Origin: a virus
Reading direction: 5' to 3' (one strand)
Length of the DNA stretch: 21,120 nucleotides
IMG/VR virus record: IMGVR_UViG_3300031999_001738
Coordinates: 1 to 21,120 of that record
Shown here: positions 2,242 through 21,044 of the stretch, piece by piece
How the letters are laid out: every line of letters begins with the position of its first letter
How positions within the stretch are numbered: the stretch's first letter is position 1
The notes under the pieces: generated by a model
What the model saw: the letters and a program-made list of their open reading frames with translations, nothing else
Told to the model about the DNA's origin: nothing
Databases searched by the model: none
Position numbers and translations under genes: made by a program

Positions 2242-2652
2242 ATGGAACAGGAAAGTCAGTCAATAGTTTTTGCGGATGATAAGATGACAGTTGAGAATGT
2301 AACATCTTATATCCCAACAGGTAATAGAATCATTGGACAAGTTATTAACGATCCTCGAAAAGAAAAGATTCTTAAGAGTGGTATTATCCTTCCCAATGAT
2401 ATTCTCGGTGGTAAAGATCCATATATTACTGTTAAAGCAATTAAAGTTGGAAGAGGAACAATGAGTCATAATGGTATCGTTCCTTGTGAAGTTAATGTTG
2501 GAGATTTGTGTCTTGTGTTTAACGGTAAATGGTTTGAGCTTAAAGAAAAACCAGTAGTCGATGAAAAAGGCAATATAAAAGACGGTGACTCGTTTGTAAT
2601 TTTCTCTGAGAACGATATTGTTGCGCTCTATAAGGATCGGGAAAAGGAATAA
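2242..2652 (+). CDS. GroES-like cochaperonin (T4 gp31-like role)
   Basis: Matches the Cpn10 fold pattern: GNRIIGQV near residue 27, a mobile-loop-like segment ending SGIILP (the I-I-L at 48-50 corresponds to the GroEL-contacting I-V-L of GroES), then VKAIKVGRG, NG...P.EVNVGDLCLVF, and the closing FVIFSENDIVALYK, close to GroES LIMSESDILAIVE. In T4, gp31 replaces GroES so that host GroEL can enclose the major capsid protein; a similar capsid-folding role is likely here. At 136 aa it is longer than GroES (97) and gp31 (111), with an extended N-terminus and an insertion before the last strand. It has an AGGAGAG Shine-Dalgarno and a late promoter directly upstream. Confidence 0.8.
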   Translation: MEQESQSIVFADDKMTVENVTSYIPTGNRIIGQVINDPRKEKILKSGIILPNDILGGKDPYITVKAIKVGRGTMSHNGIVPCEVNVGDLCLVFNGKWFELKEKPVVDEKGNIKDGDSFVIFSENDIVALYKDREKE

Positions 2653-6914: not shown

Positions 6915-7071
6915 GTCTACCGATAATAATGGAATCTCATCTCATTTTGATTGCTATACCGATGTTCTTGAGGAATTTAAAATGTTCTTGGATAATGCTC
7001 TCGAAGGTGATGTAATGTCCTATGAGATTATTGATATGACCGAAGAGGACTTTAAATCTCTCCAAGCATAG
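6901..7071 (+). CDS. Small acidic protein, 56 aa
   Basis: A 56-aa frame (MKIYKSTDNNGIS...) with a strong AAAAGGAG site overlapping the end of the previous gene. It has alpha-beta character and an acidic C-terminus (EEDFKSLQA). Its last 20 bases overlap the end of the convergent minus-strand gene, so there is no room for a separate terminator between the two blocks. Function unknown; the start context makes it likely to be real. Confidence 0.68.
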   Translation: MKIYKSTDNNGISSHFDCYTDVLEEFKMFLDNALEGDVMSYEIIDMTEEDFKSLQA

Positions 7072-7921
7072 CACATAACTCCAGAGCGACATCTACAATA
7101 TCAATTCCAGATTTCTCAATGTTTGGTGCAGTATTAGATCTGGCAACATAGTCATTTTCTGAAACTTTGTAGATACGTCCTATTTCTTTGGTTCCTTCAG
7201 TATTGATCAAAGAGAAAGACCATACATTTTCCATGACAGGATCGAATTGTATGCGAGTATTCTCATCGATCTTATATAGCTTATCGGCTTGTATTTCTTC
7301 GTGATCTATAGATTCATTTATATCTTTATATTCTATTGGATCAAAACTAAAAACCGACTTTGGTATCTTAAGATCTTTAATTATATTCAATCCTTCATAA
7401 TCATTGTCCATAGCATCCCAAACAGTATAGCTTCCATCATTTCTAACAGCGAATTTTTCATTGGTTTTTTTAGAAATAACATAATACAATCCACTTTTAG
7501 AAGCATATTCCATGAAGTCAATATTTCCCCAAGTAGTACACCATTTTGTATTTGCTCCATATTTACAAGATGCTCTAAAAGTTAAAGGCTTTACGACAAT
7601 AGCTAAAGCATTTTCGTAAACTTTAATAGCTTCATTTTCTTTTATTTCAGTATCTTTTTCACTATTTGATTTTGTTTTTTCTGCTCTGTCTACTATTTCT
7701 TTTAATCTCATAGGATCTAAACTCATTAGGTCAACACCTTTAATTTTTTTCTTATCTGAAAGAATTTTAAATCTGTTAAGATAATCTTCTATGCCTATGG
7801 TATCTGTATAAGTAGATAATATTTTATTTTTAGCTTTAGTAATTGATAACTCAGATATCTCATTTAAACATCTATGAGTTCTTTTCAAATGAGAGAGTAT
7901 GAGACGATCTTGTAGTGACAT
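7052..7921 (-). CDS. WCT-motif protein, 289 aa (late block, last gene)
   Basis: I do not know a function. The middle holds FRASCKYGANTKWCTTWGN (about 115-133) followed by YYVISKKTNEKFAVRN, a pattern 'KYG..T.WCT ... F..Y...G.LYYVI' I have seen in various phage and bacterial proteins of undefined role. The N-terminal 110 residues are helical and charged, the C-terminal part is mixed. The start MSLQDRLILSHLKRTHRCLNE could be a poor capsid-targeting sequence ending L-N-E, but is not close to the others. It follows the CCA-adding-family gene by one base with AGGAGA upstream, and is the last gene of the minus-strand late block. Confidence 0.7.
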   Translation of the reverse strand: MSLQDRLILSHLKRTHRCLNEISELSITKAKNKILSTYTDTIGIEDYLNRFKILSDKKKIKGVDLMSLDPMRLKEIVDRAEKTKSNSEKDTEIKENEAIKVYENALAIVVKPLTFRASCKYGANTKWCTTWGNIDFMEYASKSGLYYVISKKTNEKFAVRNDGSYTVWDAMDNDYEGLNIIKDLKIPKSVFSFDPIEYKDINESIDHEEIQADKLYKIDENTRIQFDPVMENVWSFSLINTEGTKEIGRIYKVSENDYVARSNTAPNIEKSGIDIVDVALELCAMLGEI

Positions 7922-7922
7922 A

Positions 7923-9404
7923 TTAAAATCTCCTTAATAGTTCTTCTTTAGCTTTTTCTTTTGTTAATTCAGCACCATATTCATCTTGTAAGTCTTTAAG
8001 TATTTTCATAGCTCTGCCAACTTCTGTTCCTGTCTTAAGTCCTAACAGAGTCATAACTTCATCGCCTTTTAAAACTGGCTTCGGTATCTCGGCTCCTGCT
8101 TCTTCAATCTTTTTACGCAAAGCAGGAATATTATCAGATGGAGGTATTTTTCCTCTCTCGTCTGCGCTTGCTAGATTTAAGATAGCAGTAACAAGTTCAG
8201 TACTGCCAACATCTCGAATAAATCTTCTGATAGTCTTAGCATCTGCATTTATCCGAAGTAACTCATATGGTCTCATGTGGTATTTAACAACAGTCTTTAC
8301 CTTAGAAACTATATTGGGTTCTATATCATCTACAGCAAACATCTTCAATCTTTCTAAAGCCTCTCCTGCCATGATAGAACCAACAGAATCATGACCGTGT
8401 GAAATAATCTTATCGTCTTTGGTTGTCGTTACTTTTGCTTTGCCGACATCATGTAGAAGTGCGGCAAGCTGATTGAGTGCGCCCTTCTCGGCGTTCTTTA
8501 AAACCATGAGAGTATGAATATATGCGTCTCCTTCTTTATGATGTTCTGGATTCTGTTGAACACCTTTAAGAGCTTCGATCTCTGGCAGAATGTAATGCAA
8601 CAATCCTGTCTCATCCATCATCTTGACAGCAGTATACATTTTACCTGCATTCATTATCTTAAAAAGTTCTGTGCTTATTCGTTCATTGGAAATAGATGTG
8701 ATTCTTTCCACATTCCTCTTAATAGTTTCAATAGCGTCAGCAGGAGCAGTTAAATCATACTTTGCTTGGAACCTGATAAACCTAACCATTCTCAAAGCAT
8801 CTTCATCAATGATCTTGTCAAATGAAACATCTGGATTTCCTCGGATAATTTTATTCTTAATATCTTCTTTGCTATATCCTGTCAAGTCTACTATTTCACC
8901 AGTAGTTAAATTCTTGATAAGCATATTCATTGTAAAGTCTCTGCGCTCAATATCTTTTTTAAGAGAAGCATACCGAGTCTCTCTTTGTCTGGAATTTCTA
9001 TCTGGATAAAATTCTTCTTGAGTATCTGCAAATTCTATTTTAGCTCCAGAGGTTTTAAATGTTTCCCCTTTGTATTCAATATCGTCATTAAATACAATAG
9101 CCCAAATAGGATATGCCCCAAGTTGATATGGAGTTGTTACCTTATCACCTAACAGATCGTGAAGATAATGAGTCACCTTCTTTGCTCCGTCTTCCAGTTC
9201 AACAACAATATCCAAGTCATTCGGATTTATAGAAGGATCATTTAATAACTCTCTCCTATACTGATCCCTAACATATCCACCGACAGCATGAACCAAATTC
9301 TTATATGGAGTTGATGGCAATAGCTTCAATAGGAATCTTTCGACTTCTGTTTCGGCAGTTGCTTCAGTCAATAAGTGTGTTTCGTAAAATTCTCTAAAAG
9401 ACAT
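7923..9404 (-). CDS. CCA-adding enzyme / poly(A) polymerase family protein with HD domain, possible capsid-targeting N-terminus
   Basis: A class II tRNA nucleotidyltransferase/poly(A) polymerase family enzyme, adding nucleotides to RNA 3' ends. Visible motifs in order: VGGYVRD (41-47), the metal-binding DLD (63-65), RRDFTMN (153-159), IRG (186-188), EDALRMVRFIRF (200-211, the EDxxR nucleotide-recognition motif) and an HD-domain signature LLHDVGK (315-321). Whether it adds CCA, CC, or A cannot be told from this. Length 493 aa, larger than E. coli Cca (412 aa). The first 15 residues, MSFREFYETHLLTEA, precede the catalytic core and resemble a T4 capsid-targeting sequence with an L-T-E|A cleavage site. 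It starts one base after the preceding gene, behind GGAG. Confidence 0.9.
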   Translation of the reverse strand: MSFREFYETHLLTEATAETEVERFLLKLLPSTPYKNLVHAVGGYVRDQYRRELLNDPSINPNDLDIVVELEDGAKKVTHYLHDLLGDKVTTPYQLGAYPIWAIVFNDDIEYKGETFKTSGAKIEFADTQEEFYPDRNSRQRETRYASLKKDIERRDFTMNMLIKNLTTGEIVDLTGYSKEDIKNKIIRGNPDVSFDKIIDEDALRMVRFIRFQAKYDLTAPADAIETIKRNVERITSISNERISTELFKIMNAGKMYTAVKMMDETGLLHYILPEIEALKGVQQNPEHHKEGDAYIHTLMVLKNAEKGALNQLAALLHDVGKAKVTTTKDDKIISHGHDSVGSIMAGEALERLKMFAVDDIEPNIVSKVKTVVKYHMRPYELLRINADAKTIRRFIRDVGSTELVTAILNLASADERGKIPPSDNIPALRKKIEEAGAEIPKPVLKGDEVMTLLGLKTGTEVGRAMKILKDLQDEYGAELTKEKAKEELLRRF

Positions 9405-9405
9405 A

Positions 9406-9681
9406 TTATAGCTCCATGTCTTCTATAAATTGTTTCGGTAACACTCGGAGTAATTCAGCTTTGTCATTATCTGATAACTCTAAAAATTTCTTCTTAAGTA
9501 TCTTTCCATATGATAATGTATAGAATGGTTTGAGAAGCTCTTCTTTATCTTGAGACCTGTTAATAAAATATAGCATTCTTTTATTCCAGTATGGTTTCTC
9601 AAGCTTGAAATCAATAGATATTCCTTCATCATCTAAAACTCCATACGGCATCTCATTCAATACAAATTCTTGAAAATCCAT
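9406..9681 (-). CDS. Hypothetical 91-aa protein with possible capsid-targeting N-terminus
   Basis: Unrecognised. Begins MDFQEFVLNEMPYG, closely resembling T4 internal-protein starts (MKTYQEFIAEA), with a potential prohead-protease cut after L-N-E (residue 10). The remainder is a small mixed domain rich in aromatic and lysine residues. It has an AGGAGAATACT leader to its ATG and lies between the probable small terminase and the CCA-adding-family gene in the late block. Likely a packaged internal head protein, by inference from the N-terminus only. Confidence 0.72.
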   Translation of the reverse strand: MDFQEFVLNEMPYGVLDDEGISIDFKLEKPYWNKRMLYFINRSQDKEELLKPFYTLSYGKILKKKFLELSDNDKAELLRVLPKQFIEDMEL

Positions 9682-10316: not shown

Positions 10317-11108
10317 TCATATCACAAAACTATAAGAATAACCAAAGGTATATTCTTTTGAAGATGACCCACCCGCATTAGTAGCAGTCAACCTTACCCT
10401 TATTCTTCTAGCATTAACACTATAAAAGGGATCGGTAAAATGTTGGTGATAAACTGTAGCTATTAGAGAATCTAAAAAGACAAAATCTTGTGTCGTGCTT
10501 ATTTGTTCAAAAGCACTTGTTGTATAATTCCATGCTTCCCATAACCAAGATGTCGGTGTGTTTGTTGAATAATCTTTTAGAGAAATATTTTCTGAATAAG
10601 CAGTAAAAAAGATACGGTCTTGCCCAAATTGACCATAATTAACATAACCAACTTCCCTCCATTTAAAATCAGCGACAGGAGCAGAGACAGGACTACCTTC
10701 TGTTGTGACTATTTGAGATGATTCTGAAGTCACATTACCAATAGCAGACAATGAAACAGTATATGAAGTATTATAGTCAGCATATGTATGAATTGGATTT
10801 TTATCTGTACTTGTATTTCCATCTCCAAAATCCCATAGATAAGAAACAATATAACCACTACTATTATTAATAAACTGAACATCAACATAATTTGAAATAC
10901 TATATGTAAACGAAGAAATCAAAGCAATAGTATCTTGATAGCTTGTTCCATTTAAGAACCATACATATGATTGGTCAGAAGCTATTCCAGATACCGCTCC
11001 AGAAGTAAAGTAATCAACTGGAATAGCAGACAATGGGATATCAGCTACGGCACTAACATATGCTATTCCGATATTATTATATGTAGAAACTTTTACTGCT
11101 GTTGTCAT
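10317..11108 (-). CDS. PKD (Ig-like) domain virion protein, 263 aa
   Basis: Contains a clear PKD domain: VQFINNSSGYIVSYLWDFGDGNTSTDKNPIHTY (WDFGDG at 92-97) ending YTVSLSAIG. A second, degenerate PKD-like repeat follows (TSWLWE ... VRLTATNAGGSSS). The N-terminal 70 residues are Ser/Thr- and Ala-rich with beta character. PKD and Ig-like domains on phage virions usually mediate weak surface binding, for example as head or tail decorations. It overlaps the tail sheath stabilizer gene by one base (TAATG), so it is translated with a neck/tail protein and is probably a virion component. No catalytic domain is seen. Confidence 0.8.
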   Translation of the reverse strand: MTTAVKVSTYNNIGIAYVSAVADIPLSAIPVDYFTSGAVSGIASDQSYVWFLNGTSYQDTIALISSFTYSISNYVDVQFINNSSGYIVSYLWDFGDGNTSTDKNPIHTYADYNTSYTVSLSAIGNVTSESSQIVTTEGSPVSAPVADFKWREVGYVNYGQFGQDRIFFTAYSENISLKDYSTNTPTSWLWEAWNYTTSAFEQISTTQDFVFLDSLIATVYHQHFTDPFYSVNARRIRVRLTATNAGGSSSKEYTFGYSYSFVI

Positions 11109-11827
11109 TAGAAACTCCCAGAGGTTGCTATTGGATCTTCAGATGTATAGTAATTTGTTGTAATAGTTTTAACAATACCAGTACTTGATAGTGGACGATA
11201 TAAGTATCCTTCAACTGATAGACCTATAGAAGCATCAGCAGTTTTATATCCACTTGAGTCCTTATCTTCATTTATATTAAAACCAATAGATGTAATAGAT
11301 ACTTTTAGATCTCTGGCAATATTAACATCATTGAATTCTTTGACTGATATTTGTGCGCAAGGATTAAAGAAGACTAAGAATTGTTCAATAATCTCTGTTA
11401 AATGTAGCCATGATTCTGTTTTTATTTCTAATGTATAATCATAATTGTATGGAGTTGGATTAAGATTAGTCAAGGAACTATCTGCATTTGTTCCTGACGT
11501 TTCTATTGAATACCTAACCCACTCTGTTATAGCATTTGAATCGCTTTGTCTTCGAGAATCATATGACATACCAGTAAAACTTAAATTAATTCGTGGTTTG
11601 ATAACATAATATCTTTGATTTACTTCCGTGTTCTCAAAATCGAACCAGTGATTTACTAACCTAAACATATAGTCTTTTTCCGGGACATTAACAATACAAG
11701 GGACAGGAATAGTTTTAATAGGATTTCCAGAAGTGTCATAATTTACACAAACAATATCTTTTACAATATTAGCAAGTGCAATCGTAATATTTCGCATTGT
11801 GTGATTAAAAAAATATTGGTAGGCCAT
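11108..11827 (-). CDS. Tail sheath stabilizer (T4 gp15-like)
   Basis: Similar to T4 gp15, which caps the tail tube and sheath at the head-proximal end and joins to the neck. Shared features: YQYFFNHTMRN.. near the start (T4 GYFYNSSFRRY), PVPCIVNVPEKDYMFRL (T4 RVPITYASKEHFMMKL), IKPRINLSFTGMSYDSRR (T4 LPRINLHLVDFSYNAP), NPTPYNYDYTLEIKTESWLHLTEIIEQFLVFFNP (T4 NPSPIKMIYELSIFTRYEDDMFQIVEQILPYFQP) and ARDLKVSITS (T4 KRDIKIVLMS). Length 239 aa against 272 in T4. Preceded by a late promoter octamer and a GAAGGAGA site, as expected for a structural gene. Confidence 0.86.
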   Translation of the reverse strand: MAYQYFFNHTMRNITIALANIVKDIVCVNYDTSGNPIKTIPVPCIVNVPEKDYMFRLVNHWFDFENTEVNQRYYVIKPRINLSFTGMSYDSRRQSDSNAITEWVRYSIETSGTNADSSLTNLNPTPYNYDYTLEIKTESWLHLTEIIEQFLVFFNPCAQISVKEFNDVNIARDLKVSITSIGFNINEDKDSSGYKTADASIGLSVEGYLYRPLSSTGIVKTITTNYYTSEDPIATSGSF

Positions 11828-11849
11828 AAGTTAAGTCTCCTTCAACTAT

Positions 11850-11857
11850 ATTTATAA
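11850..11857 (-). promoter_or_regulatory. T4-type late promoter
   Basis: TATAAATA on the minus strand, 22 bases upstream of the gp15-like start and downstream of the preceding 93-aa gene's end. Position and orientation fit a late promoter for gp15, PKD, terminase and downstream genes. Confidence 0.72.
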
Positions 11858-11869
11858 TTGGTAGAGACT

Positions 11870-12151
11870 TTAATTTGCAGGGTGTTTAAATCGATTCCAC
11901 AGGTCTTCTCTTTTTTGTAGAGCAGATTGAAAGTCTTTAGCAACATAAGCAGACCCAGTTTTCAAATCATCAAACCAGTATAGATTATATCGATGACCGA
12001 GATATCTTGCTTTTAATGCTCTAGCAAATTTCTCTCCATCATTATCATTCAATCCATTATCTTTTTCAAAATCTTCTATAGAAGAACTTGGAGAAATCGT
12101 GGACGTTCCTCCAAGTTCCATCAAAACATACTCTTTAAATGTTTGTTGCAT
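11870..12151 (-). CDS. Hypothetical 93-aa protein with possible capsid-targeting N-terminus
   Basis: Unrecognised. Starts MQQTFKEYVLMELGG, which lines up well with T4 MKTYQEFIAEA (T-F/Y-K/Q-E-Y/F-V/I ... E), with potential cleavage after L-M-E. The rest is polar: an Asp/Asn/Ser-rich stretch, then a basic helical region (FARALKARYLGHRYNLYWFDDL). It overlaps the preceding gene by one base (TAATG). Likely a small internal or packaged protein, inferred from N-terminus and late block. A late promoter for the next gene lies directly downstream. Confidence 0.72.
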   Translation of the reverse strand: MQQTFKEYVLMELGGTSTISPSSSIEDFEKDNGLNDNDGEKFARALKARYLGHRYNLYWFDDLKTGSAYVAKDFQSALQKREDLWNRFKHPAN

Positions 12152-12644: not shown

Positions 12645-12968
12645 TTATTTCTTTTTCCATGAGTTAACTAGTTTAATTGCTTCGGGGCTTGTAGCTTCTT
12701 CTACTTCTTCGGGGGTCTCTTCTTTACATTTAAGAGCATCGGTATATTCTGTAGGATTTAATTTAAGATGAGCAGTAACTATGTCCATGAGAAATTCTTC
12801 TTCTGTCATAGGTAATTCAAGTTTATTCTCATCAGCCCATACTTTAAATTTGTTATATAATTCTTTGTGGATTGCTTCATCTTCAAGACCTAATTCAATT
12901 TCTTTAGGATCGAATTCTTCTTCTACTTTATCTTCCATTGTTTCTGTAAAAAACTGTTGAAAACTCAT
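12645..12968 (-). CDS. Acidic helical protein with possible capsid-targeting N-terminus, 107 aa
   Basis: Unrecognised. Begins MSFQQFFTETMEDKVEEE: the first 10 residues resemble the T4-type capsid-targeting peptide, with F-T-E as the possible cut site. The rest is strongly acidic and helical with an EEVEEATSPEAIKLVNSWKKK end. It has a GGGGGTC site a few bases upstream and a TATAAATA late promoter at 13011-13018, making it the first gene of its late transcript. Candidate internal head or core protein. Confidence 0.76.
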   Translation of the reverse strand: MSFQQFFTETMEDKVEEEFDPKEIELGLEDEAIHKELYNKFKVWADENKLELPMTEEEFLMDIVTAHLKLNPTEYTDALKCKEETPEEVEEATSPEAIKLVNSWKKK

Positions 12969-13010: not shown

Positions 13011-13018
13011 TATTTATA
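13011..13018 (-). promoter_or_regulatory. T4-type late promoter
   Basis: TATAAATA on the minus strand, about 42 bases upstream of the 107-aa gene and just past the end of the HNH gene. Orientation matches the late block. Leader between it and the start contains the GGGGGTC ribosome site. Confidence 0.72.
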
Positions 13019-13027
13019 ATTTCTACA

Positions 13028-13321
13028 TCAAGATCGTTTATAATATAATATTTCTTTGTTGTCAATTATTGTATATTCTAAAACTTTACCTATCGTAGAA
13101 TCTAACCATCTTAATAGAATAATGCTATCTTTATTATATTGTGAATGGATTCCTATTTTCTCTGATGGAATAAAAACTTTAGTGTGACACGAAGGACATA
13201 ACATTATTCTATTATATGGTTTATTTGACCCTCTTTGAGACTTTGGTACTATATGATGATTTGCTATTTGTGTTCGAGAATCAGTGGAATACCTACAATT
13301 TGGAAATTCGCAATAAAACAT
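13028..13321 (-). CDS. HNH endonuclease, 97 aa
   Basis: Short free-standing HNH nuclease. Motifs: N-terminal CEFPNC (zinc ligands C-x4-C), ANHHIVPKSQRGSNKPYNRIMLCPSCHTKVF, which supplies the H-H (catalytic), the N of the HNH core and the C-P-x-C-H second zinc pair. Such proteins in phages act as homing endonucleases or as terminase-associated nicking nucleases. It is at the divergent end of the late block with its own late promoter (13351-13358) and an AAGGAG site. The late promoter and virion-gene neighbours favour a role in packaging or late DNA cutting, but homing is equally possible. Confidence 0.8.
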   Translation of the reverse strand: MFYCEFPNCRYSTDSRTQIANHHIVPKSQRGSNKPYNRIMLCPSCHTKVFIPSEKIGIHSQYNKDSIILLRWLDSTIGKVLEYTIIDNKEILYYKRS

Positions 13322-13331
13322 TTAATTCTCC

Positions 13332-13360
13332 TTGACTTTGATATTGCCATTATTTATATT
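13332..13360 (+). promoter_or_regulatory. Sigma70-type early promoter (divergent from late promoter)
   Basis: TTGACT at 13332-13337, a 17-base spacer, TATATT at 13355-13360, upstream of the 82-aa plus-strand gene. Its -10 shares bases with the minus-strand late octamer at 13351-13358. The same TTGACT-17-TATATT pair occurs at 16706. Confidence 0.68.
13351..13358 (-). promoter_or_regulatory. T4-type late promoter
   Basis: TATAAATA on the minus strand, about 29 bases upstream of the HNH gene. It overlaps the -10 of the plus-strand early promoter, so early rightward and late leftward initiation cannot both occur on one DNA molecule. Confidence 0.7.
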
Positions 13361-15262: not shown

Positions 15263-15471
15263 TAATCACACAAATATTAGTTTTCTTATTAACATTTTAT
15301 ATTTGTTCAAGAATATTTAAAAAGAAGAAAATATCATTGCCATATGAGAGACCTAATAATTTATGTGAGATTTGTAATGGAACTGGAAATGCTTTAAGTC
15401 CTCGAAGTGCTCATATAAAAGCAAAGATGAAATGTCTTGCATGTAAAGGTGAAGGTATTTTAAGAAAGTAA
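15259..15471 (+). CDS. Membrane protein with DnaJ-type CxxCxGxG zinc finger, 70 aa
   Basis: Starts at ATG 15259, overlapping the phosphoesterase stop, with GAGGTAA upstream; a more upstream in-frame ATG at 15229 lies within the phosphoesterase gene. Residues 2-20 form a membrane segment (IITQILVFLLTFYICSRIF), then CEICNGTGNA and CLACKGEGIL give two C-x-x-C-x-G-x-G units of the DnaJ zinc-finger type. Its C-terminal coding sequence is nearly repeated at the end of the next gene (see repeats). Confidence 0.72.
   Translation: MIITQILVFLLTFYICSRIFKKKKISLPYERPNNLCEICNGTGNALSPRSAHIKAKMKCLACKGEGILRK
15442..15470 (+). repeat. 29-base direct repeat, copy 1
   Basis: The 29 bases 15442-15470, coding for the end of the zinc-finger protein (CKGEGILRK), recur with two mismatches at 16493-16521, where they code for CKGECILRK at the end of the next gene. 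The weaker surrounding similarity (ATGAAA about 11 to 15 bases before each copy) suggests a common origin. Confidence 0.7.
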
Positions 15472-15520
15472 TTCGCTGTATAACATATTCGATATTTAAA
15501 CGAAAGAAAGCAAGGTGGTT

Positions 15521-16522
15521 ATGTATTTTGACGAGGTTCTTGAAATAGCAAAAAAATTTAAATGTGACCATATTGATGATAATTTTTTAATTAATTCACA
15601 AATTTTTAAAATCAATGAAGTGTTACAGGGAGATAGTGAAGAAGAAAGAATCGCAAAAATAACAAAAAAACATGTAATAGAAATGTATGAACAAGTTTAT
15701 AAAAAACCTATTTCTAAATTCGATACCTCGACTATTCCTTTAAGTCCATTGGTTAATGAAAAATTTAAATATTTTAATAACAGACCACCATATAATAATG
15801 TTTCCTTTTGCATTGGTTCACATGTTTATTGGGTAATATATGAGAATTATGATAATGCTAAAAATAACGAAAGAAGTGCAAGATTTACATTAATACCATT
15901 TGATATAATATGTCCTAAATTAAATATAAATTTTCCAGTAGCTTTTAATAATAAACTTAAAAATATGAATGCTAATAGTGATATTAAGATAGGTAGCGCA
16001 ACATCACAGTATCAAGAATTATTTCCTTTACACATCGAAAGAATAGATTTTTATGAAATAAACGGTGAAATAAATTTAGCAGAAAGTTATATTAAAAAAT
16101 TTAATGGTGATTCATGTCTACATTTTGGTGAACTCGAAATAGTAAAAAATCAGATGATAAATGATGTTCTTAAATTTATCAATCTTTTAAATTGTTCAAA
16201 TATTGAATATATTAAAAGCGACCCTTATTCTTTTAATAAACAAAAATCTCGTAGAAAAAAAGGAAAATTGCCTTTACTTTCTTATAAAACTTTAGTAATT
16301 AATTCAAATAAATTTATTAAAATAACAGGCAATAAAAAGGAACCAATATATTCTAATCGAATTCATTTGTGCAGGGGTCATTTTAAAAACTTTACTACAA
16401 AATTATTGTTCGGAAAATACTCTGGTCTTTATTGGTGGCAGCCATCGGTTCGAGGAAATAATAAAGAAGGGGTTGTTATGAAACGATATGAGTGTAAAGG
16501 TGAATGTATTTTGAGAAAGTAG
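15521..16522 (+). CDS. Conserved phage/bacterial hypothetical protein, 333 aa
   Basis: Function unknown, but the C-terminal part matches a known conserved pattern: the segments IHLCRGHFKNFT, FGKYSGLYWWQPSVRG and EGVV.K.Y are of the 'RxHxxRGHF ... GK..G.YWW...VRG....G...K.Y' type. The protein then ends in ECKGECILRK, not the usual KDY-type tail. Start set at ATG 15521 with AAGGTGG; GTG 15515 overlaps that site. The DNA is strikingly AT-rich with Lys/Asn-dominated coding (for example IKKFNGDS, NKFIKITGNKKEP), suggesting separate acquisition. Terminal duplication of its neighbour's sequence supports an insertion history. Confidence 0.75.
   Translation: MYFDEVLEIAKKFKCDHIDDNFLINSQIFKINEVLQGDSEEERIAKITKKHVIEMYEQVYKKPISKFDTSTIPLSPLVNEKFKYFNNRPPYNNVSFCIGSHVYWVIYENYDNAKNNERSARFTLIPFDIICPKLNINFPVAFNNKLKNMNANSDIKIGSATSQYQELFPLHIERIDFYEINGEINLAESYIKKFNGDSCLHFGELEIVKNQMINDVLKFINLLNCSNIEYIKSDPYSFNKQKSRRKKGKLPLLSYKTLVINSNKFIKITGNKKEPIYSNRIHLCRGHFKNFTTKLLFGKYSGLYWWQPSVRGNNKEGVVMKRYECKGECILRK
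16493..16521 (+). repeat. 29-base direct repeat, copy 2
   Basis: Second copy, 27 of 29 bases matching 15442-15470, ending at the same point relative to the stop codons (AAGTAA and AAGTAG). The two copies frame the 333-aa gene, about 1.05 kb apart. Confidence 0.7.
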
Positions 16523-16526
16523 TTGA

Positions 16527-16709
16527 CATTGTGATTGTTTCAAACTGATTCCAAAAGAAAGAAATAAAATTGAAGAAATTCAAGGTTTTGTTAATGACAT
16601 GGGAGAATTCTTGGATCGATTTGATGCACTCACAGAAGCTTCAAGATGCAATCAACTTATTTGGAAACATGCCCCATATAATCAACTAATGTCTGAAGAT
16701 TTATATTGA
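16527..16709 (+). pseudogene. Possible remnant of a small gene
   Basis: A frame of 60 codons without stops (…PKERNKIEEIQGFVND…, ending …NQLMSEDLY) is protein-like in composition, yet has no plausible initiation codon at its 5' end; the only ATG with any sense is at 16599, leaving about 36 residues and lacking a good ribosome site. It begins right after the second 29-base repeat, as expected if a recombination removed the start of the gene. It could also be a short real gene from 16599, or noncoding. Confidence 0.35.
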
Positions 16710-16734
16710 CTTTTACTTTTGAATCCGGTATATT
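16706..16734 (+). promoter_or_regulatory. Sigma70-type early promoter
   Basis: TTGACT at 16706-16711, 17-base spacer, TATATT at 16729-16734, identical in elements and spacing to the promoter at 13332. It lies about 40 bases ahead of the 122-aa gene and would drive the unit from 16775 through the VWA and PurA-family genes, unless the hairpin at 17161-17194 ends it. Confidence 0.82.
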
Positions 16735-16774
16735 GTATTATCTTGTAGTCTAACTTTAACAGTATGGAGGTTGT

Positions 16775-17143
16775 ATGGCAGATGGTACAGAAGCAATAAC
16801 ATCAGTAGCTCCGAAGCTTGAAGTTGCAGGTGCGTTTAGACAGTCCTTGACGAGGAATAACAAACAGATTCGTGATGATCGAGCAGTCGCAATCTGTGAA
16901 GACACACAGCTTGTTTACAAACGGAAGATCGAAGACCTCGAACTCTCTATCAAAAAGATGAAGAGGGAACAGGAAAACATGATCGATCTTTCTCCCACCA
17001 CTGCACAGAGTCTGATTCTGGCAAGTGATTTCGACTCTGCTATATATGTCAACAAGGACACTGACCTTGGCGTGAAAATAAGAAACGCTGAGATCACTCT
17101 TGAAATTGCTCGTAACAGGTATGGATATCTTTTTGGTGCATGA
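16775..17143 (+). CDS. Hypothetical helical protein, 122 aa
   Basis: Unrecognised. Begins MADGTEAITSVAPKLEVAG, with a central charged coiled-coil-like helix (YKRKIEDLELSIKKMKREQENMIDL) and an alpha-beta end (GVKIRNAEITLEIARNRYGYLFGA). No cysteines or membrane segment. The start has ATGGAGG six bases upstream and a strong promoter. GC content is higher than the preceding gene. It is followed by a perfect hairpin and the VWA unit; these proteins may act together, which is inference from order only. Confidence 0.74.
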   Translation: MADGTEAITSVAPKLEVAGAFRQSLTRNNKQIRDDRAVAICEDTQLVYKRKIEDLELSIKKMKREQENMIDLSPTTAQSLILASDFDSAIYVNKDTDLGVKIRNAEITLEIARNRYGYLFGA

Positions 17144-17160
17144 TATAAACTAATCAAATA

Positions 17161-17194
17161 AGATGGTGGAATAATCATAAATATTCCACCATCT
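17161..17194 (+). terminator. Perfect 13-bp hairpin, possible terminator
   Basis: AGATGGTGGAATA (17161-17173) pairs perfectly with TATTCCACCATCT (17182-17194), with an 8-base loop. There is no T-run after the stem (CTACTAACTTAAC), so an intrinsic terminator is not certain; it may instead protect or process the transcript between the 122-aa gene and the VWA unit. Confidence 0.5.
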
Positions 17195-17210
17195 CTACTA
17201 ACTTAACATT

Positions 17211-17230
17211 GGAGGTATCTAATGGGTGGT
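17211..17230 (+). repeat. Duplicated translation-start block, copy 1
   Basis: GGAGGTATCTAATGGGTGGT, holding a Shine-Dalgarno, start codon and Met-Gly-Gly, is repeated exactly at 17351-17370. After it, the codons stay similar (MGGNTYS here, MGGGTYC in the second copy). Confidence 0.85.
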
Positions 17231-17362
17231 AATACTTATAGCTTTAAAGGTTCTCTCGAAGAGCAAGCAGAGGCAATGGAAGCTTCTGAAACGACTCCTG
17301 TAGTTGTGGTTGACATGGTAGAAGCAATTCCTCAAGAAACAAAAAAGGACGGAGGTATCTAA
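17222..17362 (+). CDS. Small protein sharing the VWA protein's start, 46 aa
   Basis: Starts MGGNTYSFKGSLEEQAEAM behind a GGAGG site and ends at TAA whose last A is the A of the next ATG. The first seven residues and the ribosome site duplicate those of the downstream VWA gene, so it probably arose by duplication of the VWA 5' end followed by divergence. The remainder is acidic and polar with a VVVVDMV core. It may be co-expressed with the VWA protein as a partner or be a decaying leader gene. Confidence 0.68.
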   Translation: MGGNTYSFKGSLEEQAEAMEASETTPVVVVDMVEAIPQETKKDGGI

Positions 17363-17370
17363 TGGGTGGT
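17351..17370 (+). repeat. Duplicated translation-start block, copy 2
   Basis: Exact 20-base copy of 17211-17230, here serving the VWA gene. The 140-base distance equals the length of the 46-aa gene, consistent with a tandem duplication. Confidence 0.85.
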
Positions 17371-18234
17371 GGAACGTATTGTTCAACAGTTAGACTTGCA
17401 AGAGCTACCGACTTGGGATATTTCGATAAGCCTTCTTCTGAAATTTTTACACAGAGAAGTATCAACAACGCAATGAGTCCATACAACATTACCACACGAG
17501 AGTCAAGAGATTCTAAAGAGCATCCAAATTCTCTGGCTATTGTTTTGGCTCTTGACACAACAGGATCAATGGGTTCGATTCCAAATGCTCTTGTTAAAAA
17601 CGGTCTCCCCGCAATAGTGTCCAATATCATTCAAAAAGGTATCACAGACCCACAGATTCTTTTTATGGGTGTTGGAGATCATGAAGTTGATAGTGCTCCG
17701 TTGCAGGTTGGTCAGTTTGAATCGAGCGATGAACTTCTTGACAAATGGCTTACTACCGTTTATCTCGAAGGTGGTGGTGGTGGAAATGCAGGGGAAAGCT
17801 ATCTCTTGGCATGGTACTTCGCAGGTTTTAAAACAAGTATCGATTGCTTTGAGAAACGTAAACAAAAAGGTTTTCTCTTTACAATCGGAGATGAGCCGAC
17901 TCTTTCAGATATTTCGGTGAATGCAATCAAGAAGATAATGGGAGACGGACAATATCAAACGTTCACCGCACTGGAATTACTTGATAAAGCTCGTGAATCA
18001 TACCACGTTTTCCATGTTCATTTGAAAGAAACTGGTAGTGGTTCTCGTCAGTATGTCATTGATGGATGGAAACAGTTGATGCAGGATTCTTTGATTATTG
18101 CAGAACGGCATGATCAAGTTGCGAATCTGATTGCTGATAAAGTTATTGAGATTCAGAAGAATTATTTTAGCTCAGTAACTCCTACTGTCAATCCCTCATC
18201 TGACTCAACTCCTATAGATGGGATGATGCTGTGA
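17362..18234 (+). CDS. VWA-domain protein, 290 aa
   Basis: A von Willebrand factor A-like domain begins near residue 58 with ALDTTGSMG (MIDAS D65-x-x-x-S69), continues through PQILFMGVGDHE, FESSDELLDKWL, the YLEGGGGGNAGESYLLAWYFA block and LFTIGDEPTL. The N-terminus (SSEIFTQR....MSPYNITTRESRDSKEHP) is also typical of this phage/bacterial family. MIDAS sites bind a divalent metal and a protein partner; VWA proteins of this kind often work with an ATPase, none of which is visible here. The last 25 residues are Ser/Pro-rich. The stop overlaps the next gene's GTG start (GTGA). Confidence 0.82.
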   Translation: MGGGTYCSTVRLARATDLGYFDKPSSEIFTQRSINNAMSPYNITTRESRDSKEHPNSLAIVLALDTTGSMGSIPNALVKNGLPAIVSNIIQKGITDPQILFMGVGDHEVDSAPLQVGQFESSDELLDKWLTTVYLEGGGGGNAGESYLLAWYFAGFKTSIDCFEKRKQKGFLFTIGDEPTLSDISVNAIKKIMGDGQYQTFTALELLDKARESYHVFHVHLKETGSGSRQYVIDGWKQLMQDSLIIAERHDQVANLIADKVIEIQKNYFSSVTPTVNPSSDSTPIDGMML

Positions 18235-19346
18235 AAGCTGTAATTGGTTTAGGGTTTGGTGATGAGGGGAAAGGGACTGTGGTTGCATTTCTTTCCTCTC
18301 AAAATCCATTAGCAACAGTTGTAAGATTTTCTGGAGGACATCAGGCAGGTCATACTGTTGTCAAGGATGGCGGCTTGCGTCATATCTTCTCGAATTTTGG
18401 ATCGGGAACATTGACAGGAAATCGAACATACATATCAAAGTATTGTTTAGTATCTCCTGTCAATCTATGTAATGAACTTGTAGTTTTAAATCAAAAAGGT
18501 ATTATTCCCACTATCACTATTGATGATGAGTGCATGATAACGACACCATATGATTTTTACTATAATCGAATGAACAAAGAAACACAACAGCATGGTACTT
18601 GTGGTATGGGAATAGGTTCTACAGTTGCGAGAAACGAGGCGCATTATACATTGACGTTTGCAGATTTAAAAATTCCAAGTATATTTAATATTAAGATGAA
18701 TTTAATTCGTCAATATTATAAGTTTCCAGAACCATGTACGATTAAAAGTAAGTTTGATATGGAAGTGGAATCATTTAAATTAGCATGTGAAATTCTAGTC
18801 AACAAGATTCATGCTCCTATGAAAACTCATACTCATCCAAATGATATGATATTTGAAGGATCTCAGGGTCTTCTACTTGATCAGAACATAGGATTTTTCC
18901 CTCATGTAACAAGGTCTAATACTGGTTCAAAGAATATTACTGCAATAATGGGACATGTCCCTGAATACTGGTTAGTTACTAGAGCATATCAAACTCGTCA
19001 TGGAAATGGCCCTATGACCAATACCGAAAAGAAATATAAAATAGAATCTAATCCTAATGAAACCAACATCACAAATGAATATCAAGGTGAGTTCAGACGG
19101 TCTATGCTTGATTTAGATCTATTAAAATATGGATTAGATAAAGATGAAAATATATGTAGAAATAACCTTGTGATAACTTGTATTGACCATCTTAAAGAAA
19201 ACTATTCTTTTACTTATAATAACAAAATAGTTGTGTGTCCCACTAAAGAGAAATTTGCAAATGCTATTAAAGAAATTCTATTTTGTCTGAATGTTTATAT
19301 AAGCGATAGCGAAGAATTCAAAAACATTCGTAAAGTAGGAAAATAA
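18231..19346 (+). CDS. Adenylosuccinate synthetase family (PurA/PurZ-like)
   Basis: Joins IMP (or a related purine) and aspartate using GTP, giving adenylosuccinate. Key motifs: GFGDEGKG (8-15, P-loop and catalytic Asp11, matching E. coli GDEGKG Asp13), GGHQAGHT (His41), HGTCGMGIGS, FEGSQGLLLD, FPHVTRSNTGS, TRHGNGP, NEYQGEFRRSMLD and ITCIDHL, whose Asp matches the guanine-recognising TKLD of PurA. At 371 aa it is shorter than E. coli PurA (432) and nearer to archaeal and phage PurZ proteins. Phage PurZ enzymes make the 2-aminoadenine precursor from dGMP and usually have Ser in place of Asp11, so this copy looks IMP-type. It starts at GTG overlapping the VWA stop. Confidence 0.86.
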   Translation: MKAVIGLGFGDEGKGTVVAFLSSQNPLATVVRFSGGHQAGHTVVKDGGLRHIFSNFGSGTLTGNRTYISKYCLVSPVNLCNELVVLNQKGIIPTITIDDECMITTPYDFYYNRMNKETQQHGTCGMGIGSTVARNEAHYTLTFADLKIPSIFNIKMNLIRQYYKFPEPCTIKSKFDMEVESFKLACEILVNKIHAPMKTHTHPNDMIFEGSQGLLLDQNIGFFPHVTRSNTGSKNITAIMGHVPEYWLVTRAYQTRHGNGPMTNTEKKYKIESNPNETNITNEYQGEFRRSMLDLDLLKYGLDKDENICRNNLVITCIDHLKENYSFTYNNKIVVCPTKEKFANAIKEILFCLNVYISDSEEFKNIRKVGK

Positions 19347-20153: not shown

Positions 20154-21044
20154 ATGAAAAAACTTCTTGTATGCGAGGGTGGTGGAGTAAAAGGTTATAT
20201 GAGTTCCTTTGTTCTGAAAAGACTTGAAGAAGAACATGGAATGCTTGGTAGTTACTATGATCTTATGACAGGATCTTCAACAGGAGCTATATCAACTGCT
20301 CTTATATCTTCAATGCAATTAGACGCAAGTTCACTTAATTCTATGTATCCTGAAATGGTTAAGAGAGTCTTTGCGAAAACTTGGTATCCTCATCTTCCTC
20401 CGATTTATGATAGGAAAAATTTTGTAGCAGTATGGGAGCAATTGATAGATAAGAATTTTAAGATGAATGAATGCGCTTGTAAACTTATGATTACTTCTCT
20501 TAACTTATGCGATTCGATGACACATTTCTTTAAGTCATGGGAAAAAGTAGATGGCGAGACACCACTTATGGAAGCAGTAATAAAATCTGCATTATCTGCG
20601 CCACTCTACTTTGACCCTGTTGTTGATGAAGGAGATAAAGCAGTATGGAGTGATGGTGGTATGGGATATTATAATATGAATCTCGATACTGTTATTGTTG
20701 AATCTATTTTACAGGATTGGCTTAAAGAAGGAATAATGATTGATATTATTGGCTGTGGATACTCTTATAAAATATTCCCATTCGACAAAGTAAAGAAGTG
20801 GTCATTCATTAAAGAATTGTTTGATTACTTTCGTATGGATGATGGTGGAATAGCTCGATCAGTCGCTAAACAAGATCAGATTAGAAAGATGATGAAACTT
20901 GCCGATCATATCGAAATAAATTATAGATATTGGGATATAGCAATTCCTGAAAAGATTGACAAATTAGATGGTGTAAACTTCATTAAAGAATATGCAGAAC
21001 TTGGAAAGAGAATGGCCGAGAAACCTTTATTGGAGAAATTATAA
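20154..21044 (+). CDS. Patatin-like phospholipase, 296 aa
   Basis: Contains the three patatin signatures: the oxyanion loop GGGVKG (9-14), the nucleophile elbow GSSTG (40-44, Ser42) and the catalytic Asp in SDGG (Asp167, DGG). These make a Ser-Asp dyad that hydrolyses acyl lipids. There is no signal peptide, so it would act from the cytoplasm on the inner membrane or on lipid vesicles. Expression may be late (promoter at 19800) with AAAGG before its ATG. Possible roles are lysis aid, envelope remodelling, or blocking host membrane-based defences. The stop overlaps the next start (TAATG). Confidence 0.85.
   Translation: MKKLLVCEGGGVKGYMSSFVLKRLEEEHGMLGSYYDLMTGSSTGAISTALISSMQLDASSLNSMYPEMVKRVFAKTWYPHLPPIYDRKNFVAVWEQLIDKNFKMNECACKLMITSLNLCDSMTHFFKSWEKVDGETPLMEAVIKSALSAPLYFDPVVDEGDKAVWSDGGMGYYNMNLDTVIVESILQDWLKEGIMIDIIGCGYSYKIFPFDKVKKWSFIKELFDYFRMDDGGIARSVAKQDQIRKMMKLADHIEINYRYWDIAIPEKIDKLDGVNFIKEYAELGKRMAEKPLLEKL

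What the first reader, a model, noticed from the sequence alone, without database searches (positions are those of the whole stretch)
7923..9404. A CCA-adding-family enzyme that may be injected into the host
Seen: the nucleotidyltransferase has full catalytic motifs plus an extra N-terminal 20 residues resembling a capsid-targeting signal with an L-T-E|A cleavage site, and lies in a block with T4-type late promoters. Inference: it may be packaged and delivered at infection to restore tRNA 3' ends, for example after host tRNA-cleaving defences, or to tail RNA, before any phage gene is read. I know of no described packaged phage CCA-adding enzyme.
Basis: partly seen in the sequence, partly recalled or inferred. 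Interest (0 to 1): 0.72.

Follow-up and report, generated by a model that had tools for sequence, protein, structure and literature searches.

The report
Phage tRNA-repair enzyme with head-packaging tag
A T4-like phage encodes a tRNA-end-repair (CCA-adding) enzyme that starts with the short removable tag T4 uses to load proteins into its head; distant phages put their own version of that tag on the same enzyme, so it is probably carried in the virus particle and injected into the bacterium, although nobody has yet looked for it in a particle.

Summary
Window 7923-9404(-) encodes an intact class II CCA-adding/poly(A)-polymerase-family enzyme with an HD domain. It begins MSFREFYETHLLTE|A, matching T4 IPI (MKTFKEFT...TITE|A) and IPIII (MKTYQEFIAE|A). 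Three unrelated proteins in the same ten-gene late block carry the same tag. A T4-IP-derived pattern hits 4 of 10 block genes against 8 of 2,779 background N-termini; tag plus [LI]xE[AGS] occurs in 0 of 2,779.

Comparison goes further. Of 67 non-redundant phage homologues, 24 have a gp21-type [LI]xE[AGS] site just before the enzyme; none of 50 cellular homologues do. A looser LxE-type site sits at one position, 26 residues before the GG motif, in about 25 phage enzymes and the window. Each lineage uses its own tag, shared with unrelated neighbours (ADP-ribosyltransferase, Acb1 anti-CBASS, GNAT, lysozyme). Some enzymes are fused to other domains, with the tag or site at the junction. Phage G023 has a gp21 protease, gp23, T4-type tags on several unrelated proteins, and a tagged enzyme. 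Named isolates checked have untagged enzymes.

Best reading: head-packaged, trimmed and ejected. Not shown: presence in a virion, cleavage, or tRNA repair activity.

The parts
7923..9404 (-). CCA-adding/poly(A)-polymerase-family tRNA nucleotidyltransferase with HD domain, 493 aa
9363..9404 (-). Putative capsid-targeting propeptide, residues 1-14 MSFREFYETHLLTE, predicted cleavage LTE|A after residue 14
   Evidence: same layout as T4 IPI/IPIII; pLDDT <50 only at residues 2-13; joint motif 0/2779 background
8841..9287 (-). Nucleotidyltransferase head domain (residues 40-188), catalytic D63/D65, RRD
   Evidence: PF01743; invariant
8571..8729 (-). PolyA_pol_RNAbd domain (residues 226-278)
   Evidence: PF12627
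8262..8522 (-). HD phosphohydrolase domain (residues 295-381)
   Evidence: PF01966; metal-ligand-type residues invariant
9406..9681 (-). Unrelated 91-aa protein with the same tag, MDFQEFVLNE|M
11870..12151 (-). Unrelated 93-aa protein with the same tag, MQQTFKEYVLME|L
12645..12968 (-). Unrelated 107-aa protein with the same tag, MSFQQFFTE|T
11108..11827 (-). gp15-like tail sheath stabiliser: marks a T4-superfamily phage and a late structural block
   Evidence: PF16724 1e-35; phrog_227
11849..11856 (-). T4-type late promoter TATAAATA, 22 nt before gp15; nearest one upstream of the enzyme
13011..13018 (-). T4-type late promoter TATAAATA, 43 nt before the tagged 107-aa gene
13351..13358 (-). T4-type late promoter TATAAATA, 30 nt before the 97-aa HNH-like gene
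7052..7921 (-). 289-aa protein directly downstream in the same operon, PHROG of unknown function
   Evidence: phrog_28193

Best explanation
The gene encodes a CCA-adding enzyme used as head cargo. It is made late in infection. Its first 14 residues act as a T4-type capsid-targeting sequence that binds it to the prohead core. The gp21-type prohead protease removes the tag at LTE|A, and the folded enzyme stays with the DNA and enters the next host at injection. There it rebuilds or repairs tRNA 3' CCA ends before any phage gene is expressed, with the HD domain clearing 2'/3' phosphates. Shown: the sequence layout, the intact fold and motifs, the conserved site position, and the recurrence of lineage-specific tags on this enzyme. 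Inferred: packaging, cleavage, ejection and tRNA repair.
For: 1) The tag matches T4 IPI/IPIII in spacing and cleavage site. In IPIII, residues 4 and 7 direct targeting, residues 8 and 10 direct processing, and the tag packages foreign proteins (PMC9026906). 2) Four tagged genes of ten in the block (1.4e-8); joint motif 0/2779. 3) AF2 mean pLDDT 92; only residues 2-13 fall below 50, ending at the site. 4) [LI]xE[AGS] before the domain in 24/67 phage and 0/50 cellular enzymes; a looser LxE-type site lies at offset 26 in about 25 phage enzymes and in the window. 5) Lineage-specific tags shared with unrelated neighbours: MIKLKxLLxE, MNKIAxELLRIAR, LSKRA. 6) Junction sites in fusions: L016 SET-TopoIB-NTase with [LI]SKRA five times, L048 GNAT-NTase, L061. 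7) Tagged neighbours are effector-like: ART-PolyVal, Acb1, GNAT, 2H, lysozyme. 8) Relative G023: gp21 and gp23, T4-type tags on several unrelated proteins including a ferritin-like one, tagged NTase MSFRQFLFES|A. The T4-type tag needs two separate placements on the enzyme tree. 9) G024: 43/43 tRNA genes examined encode CCA.
Against: No virion proteomics or enzyme assay exists. The window is a 21-kb fragment with no capsid or protease gene, so its own gp21 cannot be checked. Named isolates with this enzyme (RaK2, Atu_ph07, Vibrio D69, GAP31, Hena1, RHph_I1_18) and Lak phages lack the tag, so packaging is not general. The MNKIA/LSKRA lineages show no gp21 or gp23, so their tags are capsid tags only by analogy. 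A generic N-terminus similarity test was not significant for the window (p=0.096), though its null pool contained tags. The three neighbouring window tags have non-canonical P1' residues (M, L, T).
Confidence: 0.7

Rival explanations
1. The enzyme is packaged as described, but its main injected role is not CCA repair: it could tail other RNAs (poly(A)/C addition) or use the HD domain on nucleotide signals or damaged RNA ends.
For: Class II CCA enzymes and poly(A) polymerases share motifs; NCBIfam hits both, CCA best but below cut-off. PDB relatives include CCA-adding and poly(A) enzymes. Tagged neighbours include nucleotide-signal hydrolases such as Acb1.
Against: Best family and fold matches are tRNA-processing and CCA-adding enzymes. 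No feature specific to poly(A) polymerase was found.
Confidence: 0.2
2. An ordinary intracellular late enzyme; the N-terminal resemblance is coincidental or a non-functional relic and the protein is never in the virion.
For: No proteomics. Many phage relatives lack a tag. Site conservation among homologues could partly be shared descent.
Against: Joint motif 0/2779 and four tagged genes in one block. Tags differ by lineage yet match the same phage's other proteins, and the T4-type tag appears in two separate branches. The site is kept at junctions of fusions. Cellular homologues 0/50.
Confidence: 0.15
3. The tag brings the enzyme to the prohead core, but its role is in assembly or incidental: it is degraded or retained and not delivered in active form.
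For: T4 core proteins gp67 and gp22 are cut to small fragments and gp68 is lost from the mature head (PMC9026906).
Against: The enzyme keeps intact catalytic and HD residues across distant phages; the predicted cut leaves the fold untouched; its relatives' neighbours are effector-like enzymes.
Confidence: 0.1

Closest known systems
T4 internal proteins IPI-IPIII and Alt (capsid-targeting sequence, gp21 processing, ejection)
   Same: Short N-terminal tag with two aromatics three apart and LxE/IxE|A cut; T4-type late block; unrelated mature proteins sharing only the tag; cargo recognised by its signal, as was done for T-even ip genes (PMC12373910).
   Different: Cargo is a CCA-adding enzyme. T4 cargo known so far are restriction inhibitors and an ADP-ribosyltransferase. 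Virion presence not shown here.
Class II CCA-adding enzymes / tRNA nucleotidyltransferases with HD domain (E. coli Cca type; tRNA-processing enzymes 3wfo-3wfs; T. maritima 3h38)
   Same: Head, RNA-binding and HD domains, motifs and fold.
   Different: N-terminal removable tag absent from 50 cellular homologues examined.
Phage CCA-adding enzymes of named isolates (RaK2 gp031, Atu_ph07 gp18, GAP31)
   Same: Same enzyme family; proposed tRNA repair or maturation role (PMC7824862, PMC3622015).
   Different: Untagged, starting almost directly at the catalytic domain; not reported as virion cargo in the text read.
Polyvalent proteins of phages and conjugative elements (Iyer et al. 2017, PMC5512222)
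   Same: Several enzymatic domains in one injected polypeptide, including ART, GNAT and peptidase domains; relatives L016 and L002 resemble this.
   Different: No CCA or poly(A) polymerase domain appears in that paper's text; here repeated tag/cleavage-like motifs separate the domains.

Membership tests
CCA-adding / class II nucleotidyltransferase | PolyA_pol head + RNA-binding domain above curated cut-off | tested here: met
   PF01743 51.1 bits (cut 23), PF12627 53.2 (cut 22)
CCA-adding / class II nucleotidyltransferase | Catalytic motifs GG..RD, DxD, RRD, EDxxR intact | tested here: met
   sequence and invariant columns
CCA-adding / class II nucleotidyltransferase | Adds C, C, A rather than poly(A) | not testable with these tools
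   NCBIfam CCA equivalogs best but below cut-off; needs an assay
T4-type internal (CTS) protein | N-terminal tag with aromatics at spacing 3 and L/IxE|A cleavage site | tested here: met
T4-type internal (CTS) protein | Same tag on otherwise unrelated proteins of the same phage | tested here: met
   9406-9681, 11870-12151, 12645-12968
T4-type internal (CTS) protein | gp21-type prohead protease in the same phage | tested here: inconclusive
   Window is a 21-kb fragment; present in relative G023 and in MIKLK-tag phages G013, G016, G018, G024
T4-type internal (CTS) protein | Late expression | tested here: inconclusive
   Late promoters in the block, none directly before this gene
T4-type internal (CTS) protein | Found trimmed in the virion and ejected | not testable with these tools
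   needs proteomics
Polyvalent protein | Several distinct catalytic activities in one polypeptide | tested here: not met
   Window protein has only the NTase/HD unit; relatives L016, L002, L046 and L048 do meet it

The most novel reading that the evidence does not exclude
Delivery of a CCA-adding enzyme in the virion is a recurrent strategy: several phage lineages have fitted their own head-targeting/cleavage tag to it, in some cases inside multi-enzyme cargo polyproteins cut at repeated tag motifs, so tRNA 3' ends are repaired at time zero alongside injected ADP-ribosyltransferases and anti-CBASS enzymes.
Probability: 0.5. Interest if true: 0.85.

Novelty: new variant of a known kind. Interest (0 to 1): 0.74.

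Why it matters
If true, tRNA repair belongs to the injected first wave of phage counter-measures, before any phage gene can be expressed. Tag reading would then also be a general way to list virion cargo in metagenomic phages: in these loci it already flags Acb1, ART-PolyVal, GNAT, ferritin-like and other proteins. The claim is directly testable in one proteomics run. It would also connect T4 internal proteins, the polyvalent proteins of other phages and the tRNA-targeting defence field.

Tried and rejected
Searching viral contigs with the single protein, and with gp15, found no relatives; an alignment was needed. The window has no tRNA or Rfam RNA, so no local tRNA substrate. The chance reading of the tag was rejected on background counts. 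The tag as part of the fold was rejected by pLDDT. The idea that every phage CCA enzyme is tagged was rejected by the isolates. A generic N-terminus similarity permutation was under-powered and its null contained tags; the window scored p=0.096 there, so I did not rely on it. TATAAATA count alone was weak; placement was used instead. The HNH-like gene at 13028 also matches the aromatic pattern (MFYCEF) but looks like a zinc-finger start with no LxE site, so it is not counted as tagged. L016's row in the tree was mis-trimmed (long branch), so its placement is ignored. Tag classes B and C were defined after seeing the data; only the T4-derived pattern and the [LI]xE[AGS] test are independent of it. 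Phage homologues are related, so counts are not independent events. Literature searches (open-access papers only) showed no packaged phage CCA enzyme.

Full report
The observation. Window 7923-9404 on the minus strand is a 493-aa ORF with PolyA_pol head, PolyA_pol_RNAbd and HD domains, all above Pfam cut-offs, and a match to PHROG tRNA nucleotidyltransferase at 3e-51. The catalytic residues (GG..RD, D63/D65, RRD 154-156, EDxxR) and the HD-domain H/D residues are almost all invariant across 21 phage homologues. An AlphaFold2 model from that alignment has mean pLDDT 92.3 and pTM 0.86. Its best solved matches are tRNA-processing enzymes of the 3wfo-3wfs group and CCA-adding enzymes. The phage belongs to the T4 superfamily: gp15 lies in the same block.

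The tag. Read from the T4 record, IPII and IPIII begin MKTYQEFIAE|A and IPI begins MKTFKEFTSTTTPVSTITE|A. The window enzyme begins MSFREFYETHLLTE|A. In IPIII the residues at 4 and 7 direct targeting and 8 and 10 direct processing, and the tag alone packages foreign proteins (PMC9026906). Ip1-3 share no homology other than this leader, and many T-even ip genes were found by it (PMC12373910). In the model only residues 2-13 have pLDDT below 50, so the unreliable stretch ends at the predicted cut 14|15. Three unrelated proteins of the same block carry the tag: MDFQEFVLNE, MQQTFKEYVLME and MSFQQFFTE. The T4-derived pattern is found in 8 of 2,779 background phage N-termini and in four plausible genes of ten here (1.4e-8). 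Pattern plus [LI]xE[AGS] is found in none of 2,779. Three of the four minus-strand TATAAATA sites lie 22-43 nt before start codons; none lies directly before the enzyme.

Comparison across phages. An alignment-based scan gave 80 viral loci, 28-49% identical. In 67 non-redundant phage enzymes, 24 have [LI]xE[AGS] in the segment before the domain, against 0 of 50 cellular enzymes. Counting a looser site ([LIVM]xE with any small or polar next residue), 25 occurrences lie exactly 26 residues before the GG motif, the same offset as the window. The tag itself varies by phage lineage: MIKLKxLLxE in T4-like contigs, MNKIAxELLRIAR and LSKRA in others. In each case unrelated neighbours share it. For the MIKLK group, an alignment of 46 proteins, mostly tagged neighbours plus a few NTase fusions, has the consensus MIKLKxLxxE followed by almost nothing. 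On the tree, the window enzyme sits among the MNKIA/LSKRA-lineage enzymes while L075, the other T4-type-tagged enzyme, sits among the MIKLK enzymes, so well-supported branches force at least two placements of the T4-type tag.

Fusions. In several phages the enzyme is fused behind other domains and the junction keeps the motif. L048 is GNAT-(IKLKEIIYES)-segment-(METKLNE|G)-NTase. L061 starts MIKLKSLLNES and has ELIME|A before the NTase. L016 joins SET, topoisomerase IB and NTase domains in 1,504 aa with [LI]SKRA five times, including just before the NTase, and the same LSKR starts neighbouring proteins. L002, the 735-kb phage, has NMLNE|A before the NTase behind a deaminase domain. This fits cargo polyproteins cut at tag-like sites; cleavage itself is inferred.

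A bridging case. Contig G023 (224 kb) has a gp21-type protease at 7e-38 and gp23 at 9e-143, T4-type tags on several unrelated proteins (for example MLTFEQFLSE|A, MKGFHQFLKE|S on a ferritin-like protein, MKSFQAFNE|A), and the tagged enzyme MSFRQFLFES|A. In G016 tagged small proteins lie around gp21 in the head-core module near the capsid gene. Tagged proteins near the enzymes include ART-PolyVal, Acb1, GNAT, 2H/LigT, lysozyme and peptidase domains.

Controls and limits. Enzymes of RaK2, Atu_ph07, Vibrio D69, GAP31, Hena1, RHph_I1_18 and Lak phages are untagged. The window fragment lacks capsid genes. MNKIA/LSKRA contigs show no gp21 or gp23, so their tags are analogues by inference. Tag classes B and C were defined after inspection, and homologues are not independent. 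No proteomics or assay was available.

Mechanism. The best-supported account is core targeting, gp21-type trimming at LTE|A, co-packaging with DNA and ejection, then 3'-end repair of tRNA. In G024, all 43 tRNA genes examined encode CCA, so in that phage the tagged enzyme is not needed to mature them, which favours repair. It could not by itself mend anticodon-loop cuts.

Novelty. Packaged T4 internal proteins, CCA-adding phage enzymes (PMC7824862) and injected polyvalent proteins (PMC5512222) are known. A head-tagged CCA-adding enzyme, recurring with lineage-matched tags, was not found in the open-access papers searched.

Noticed in passing
window 20154-21044(+): Patatin-like phospholipase resembling CBASS CapV-type effectors (NCBIfam CBASS_lipase 1.5e-20, below cut-off; PADLOC effector 1.7e-26) encoded in a phage.
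   Followed up: partly
window 18231-19346(+): Adenylosuccinate synthetase; scores far better as PurA than as PurZ.
   Followed up: partly
window 2242-2652(+): Weak GroES-like co-chaperonin, as in T4-type phages with gp31.
   Followed up: no
window 7052-7921(-): Protein downstream of the enzyme with a KYGANTKWCTT stretch, matching two PHROGs of unknown function.
   Followed up: no
L016:8123-12637 and 15372-18065; L017:3-7466: Very long multi-domain phage proteins with [LI]SKRA repeated at domain junctions and at N-termini of neighbours: possible cargo polyproteins.
   Followed up: partly
L151:16761-17351 (G023): Ferritin/Dps-like protein carrying a T4-type capsid tag MKGFHQFLKE|S: possibly packaged.
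   Followed up: partly
L130 and L131 (G024): 365-kb phage contig with a tmRNA and about 50 tRNA genes, 43 of 43 examined encoding CCA, together with a tagged CCA-adding enzyme.
   Followed up: partly
L022:9437-11446: NTase fused behind a domain starting LYHVTRARHLDDI that looks like an ADP-ribosyltransferase; Pfam gave no match for that part.
   Followed up: no
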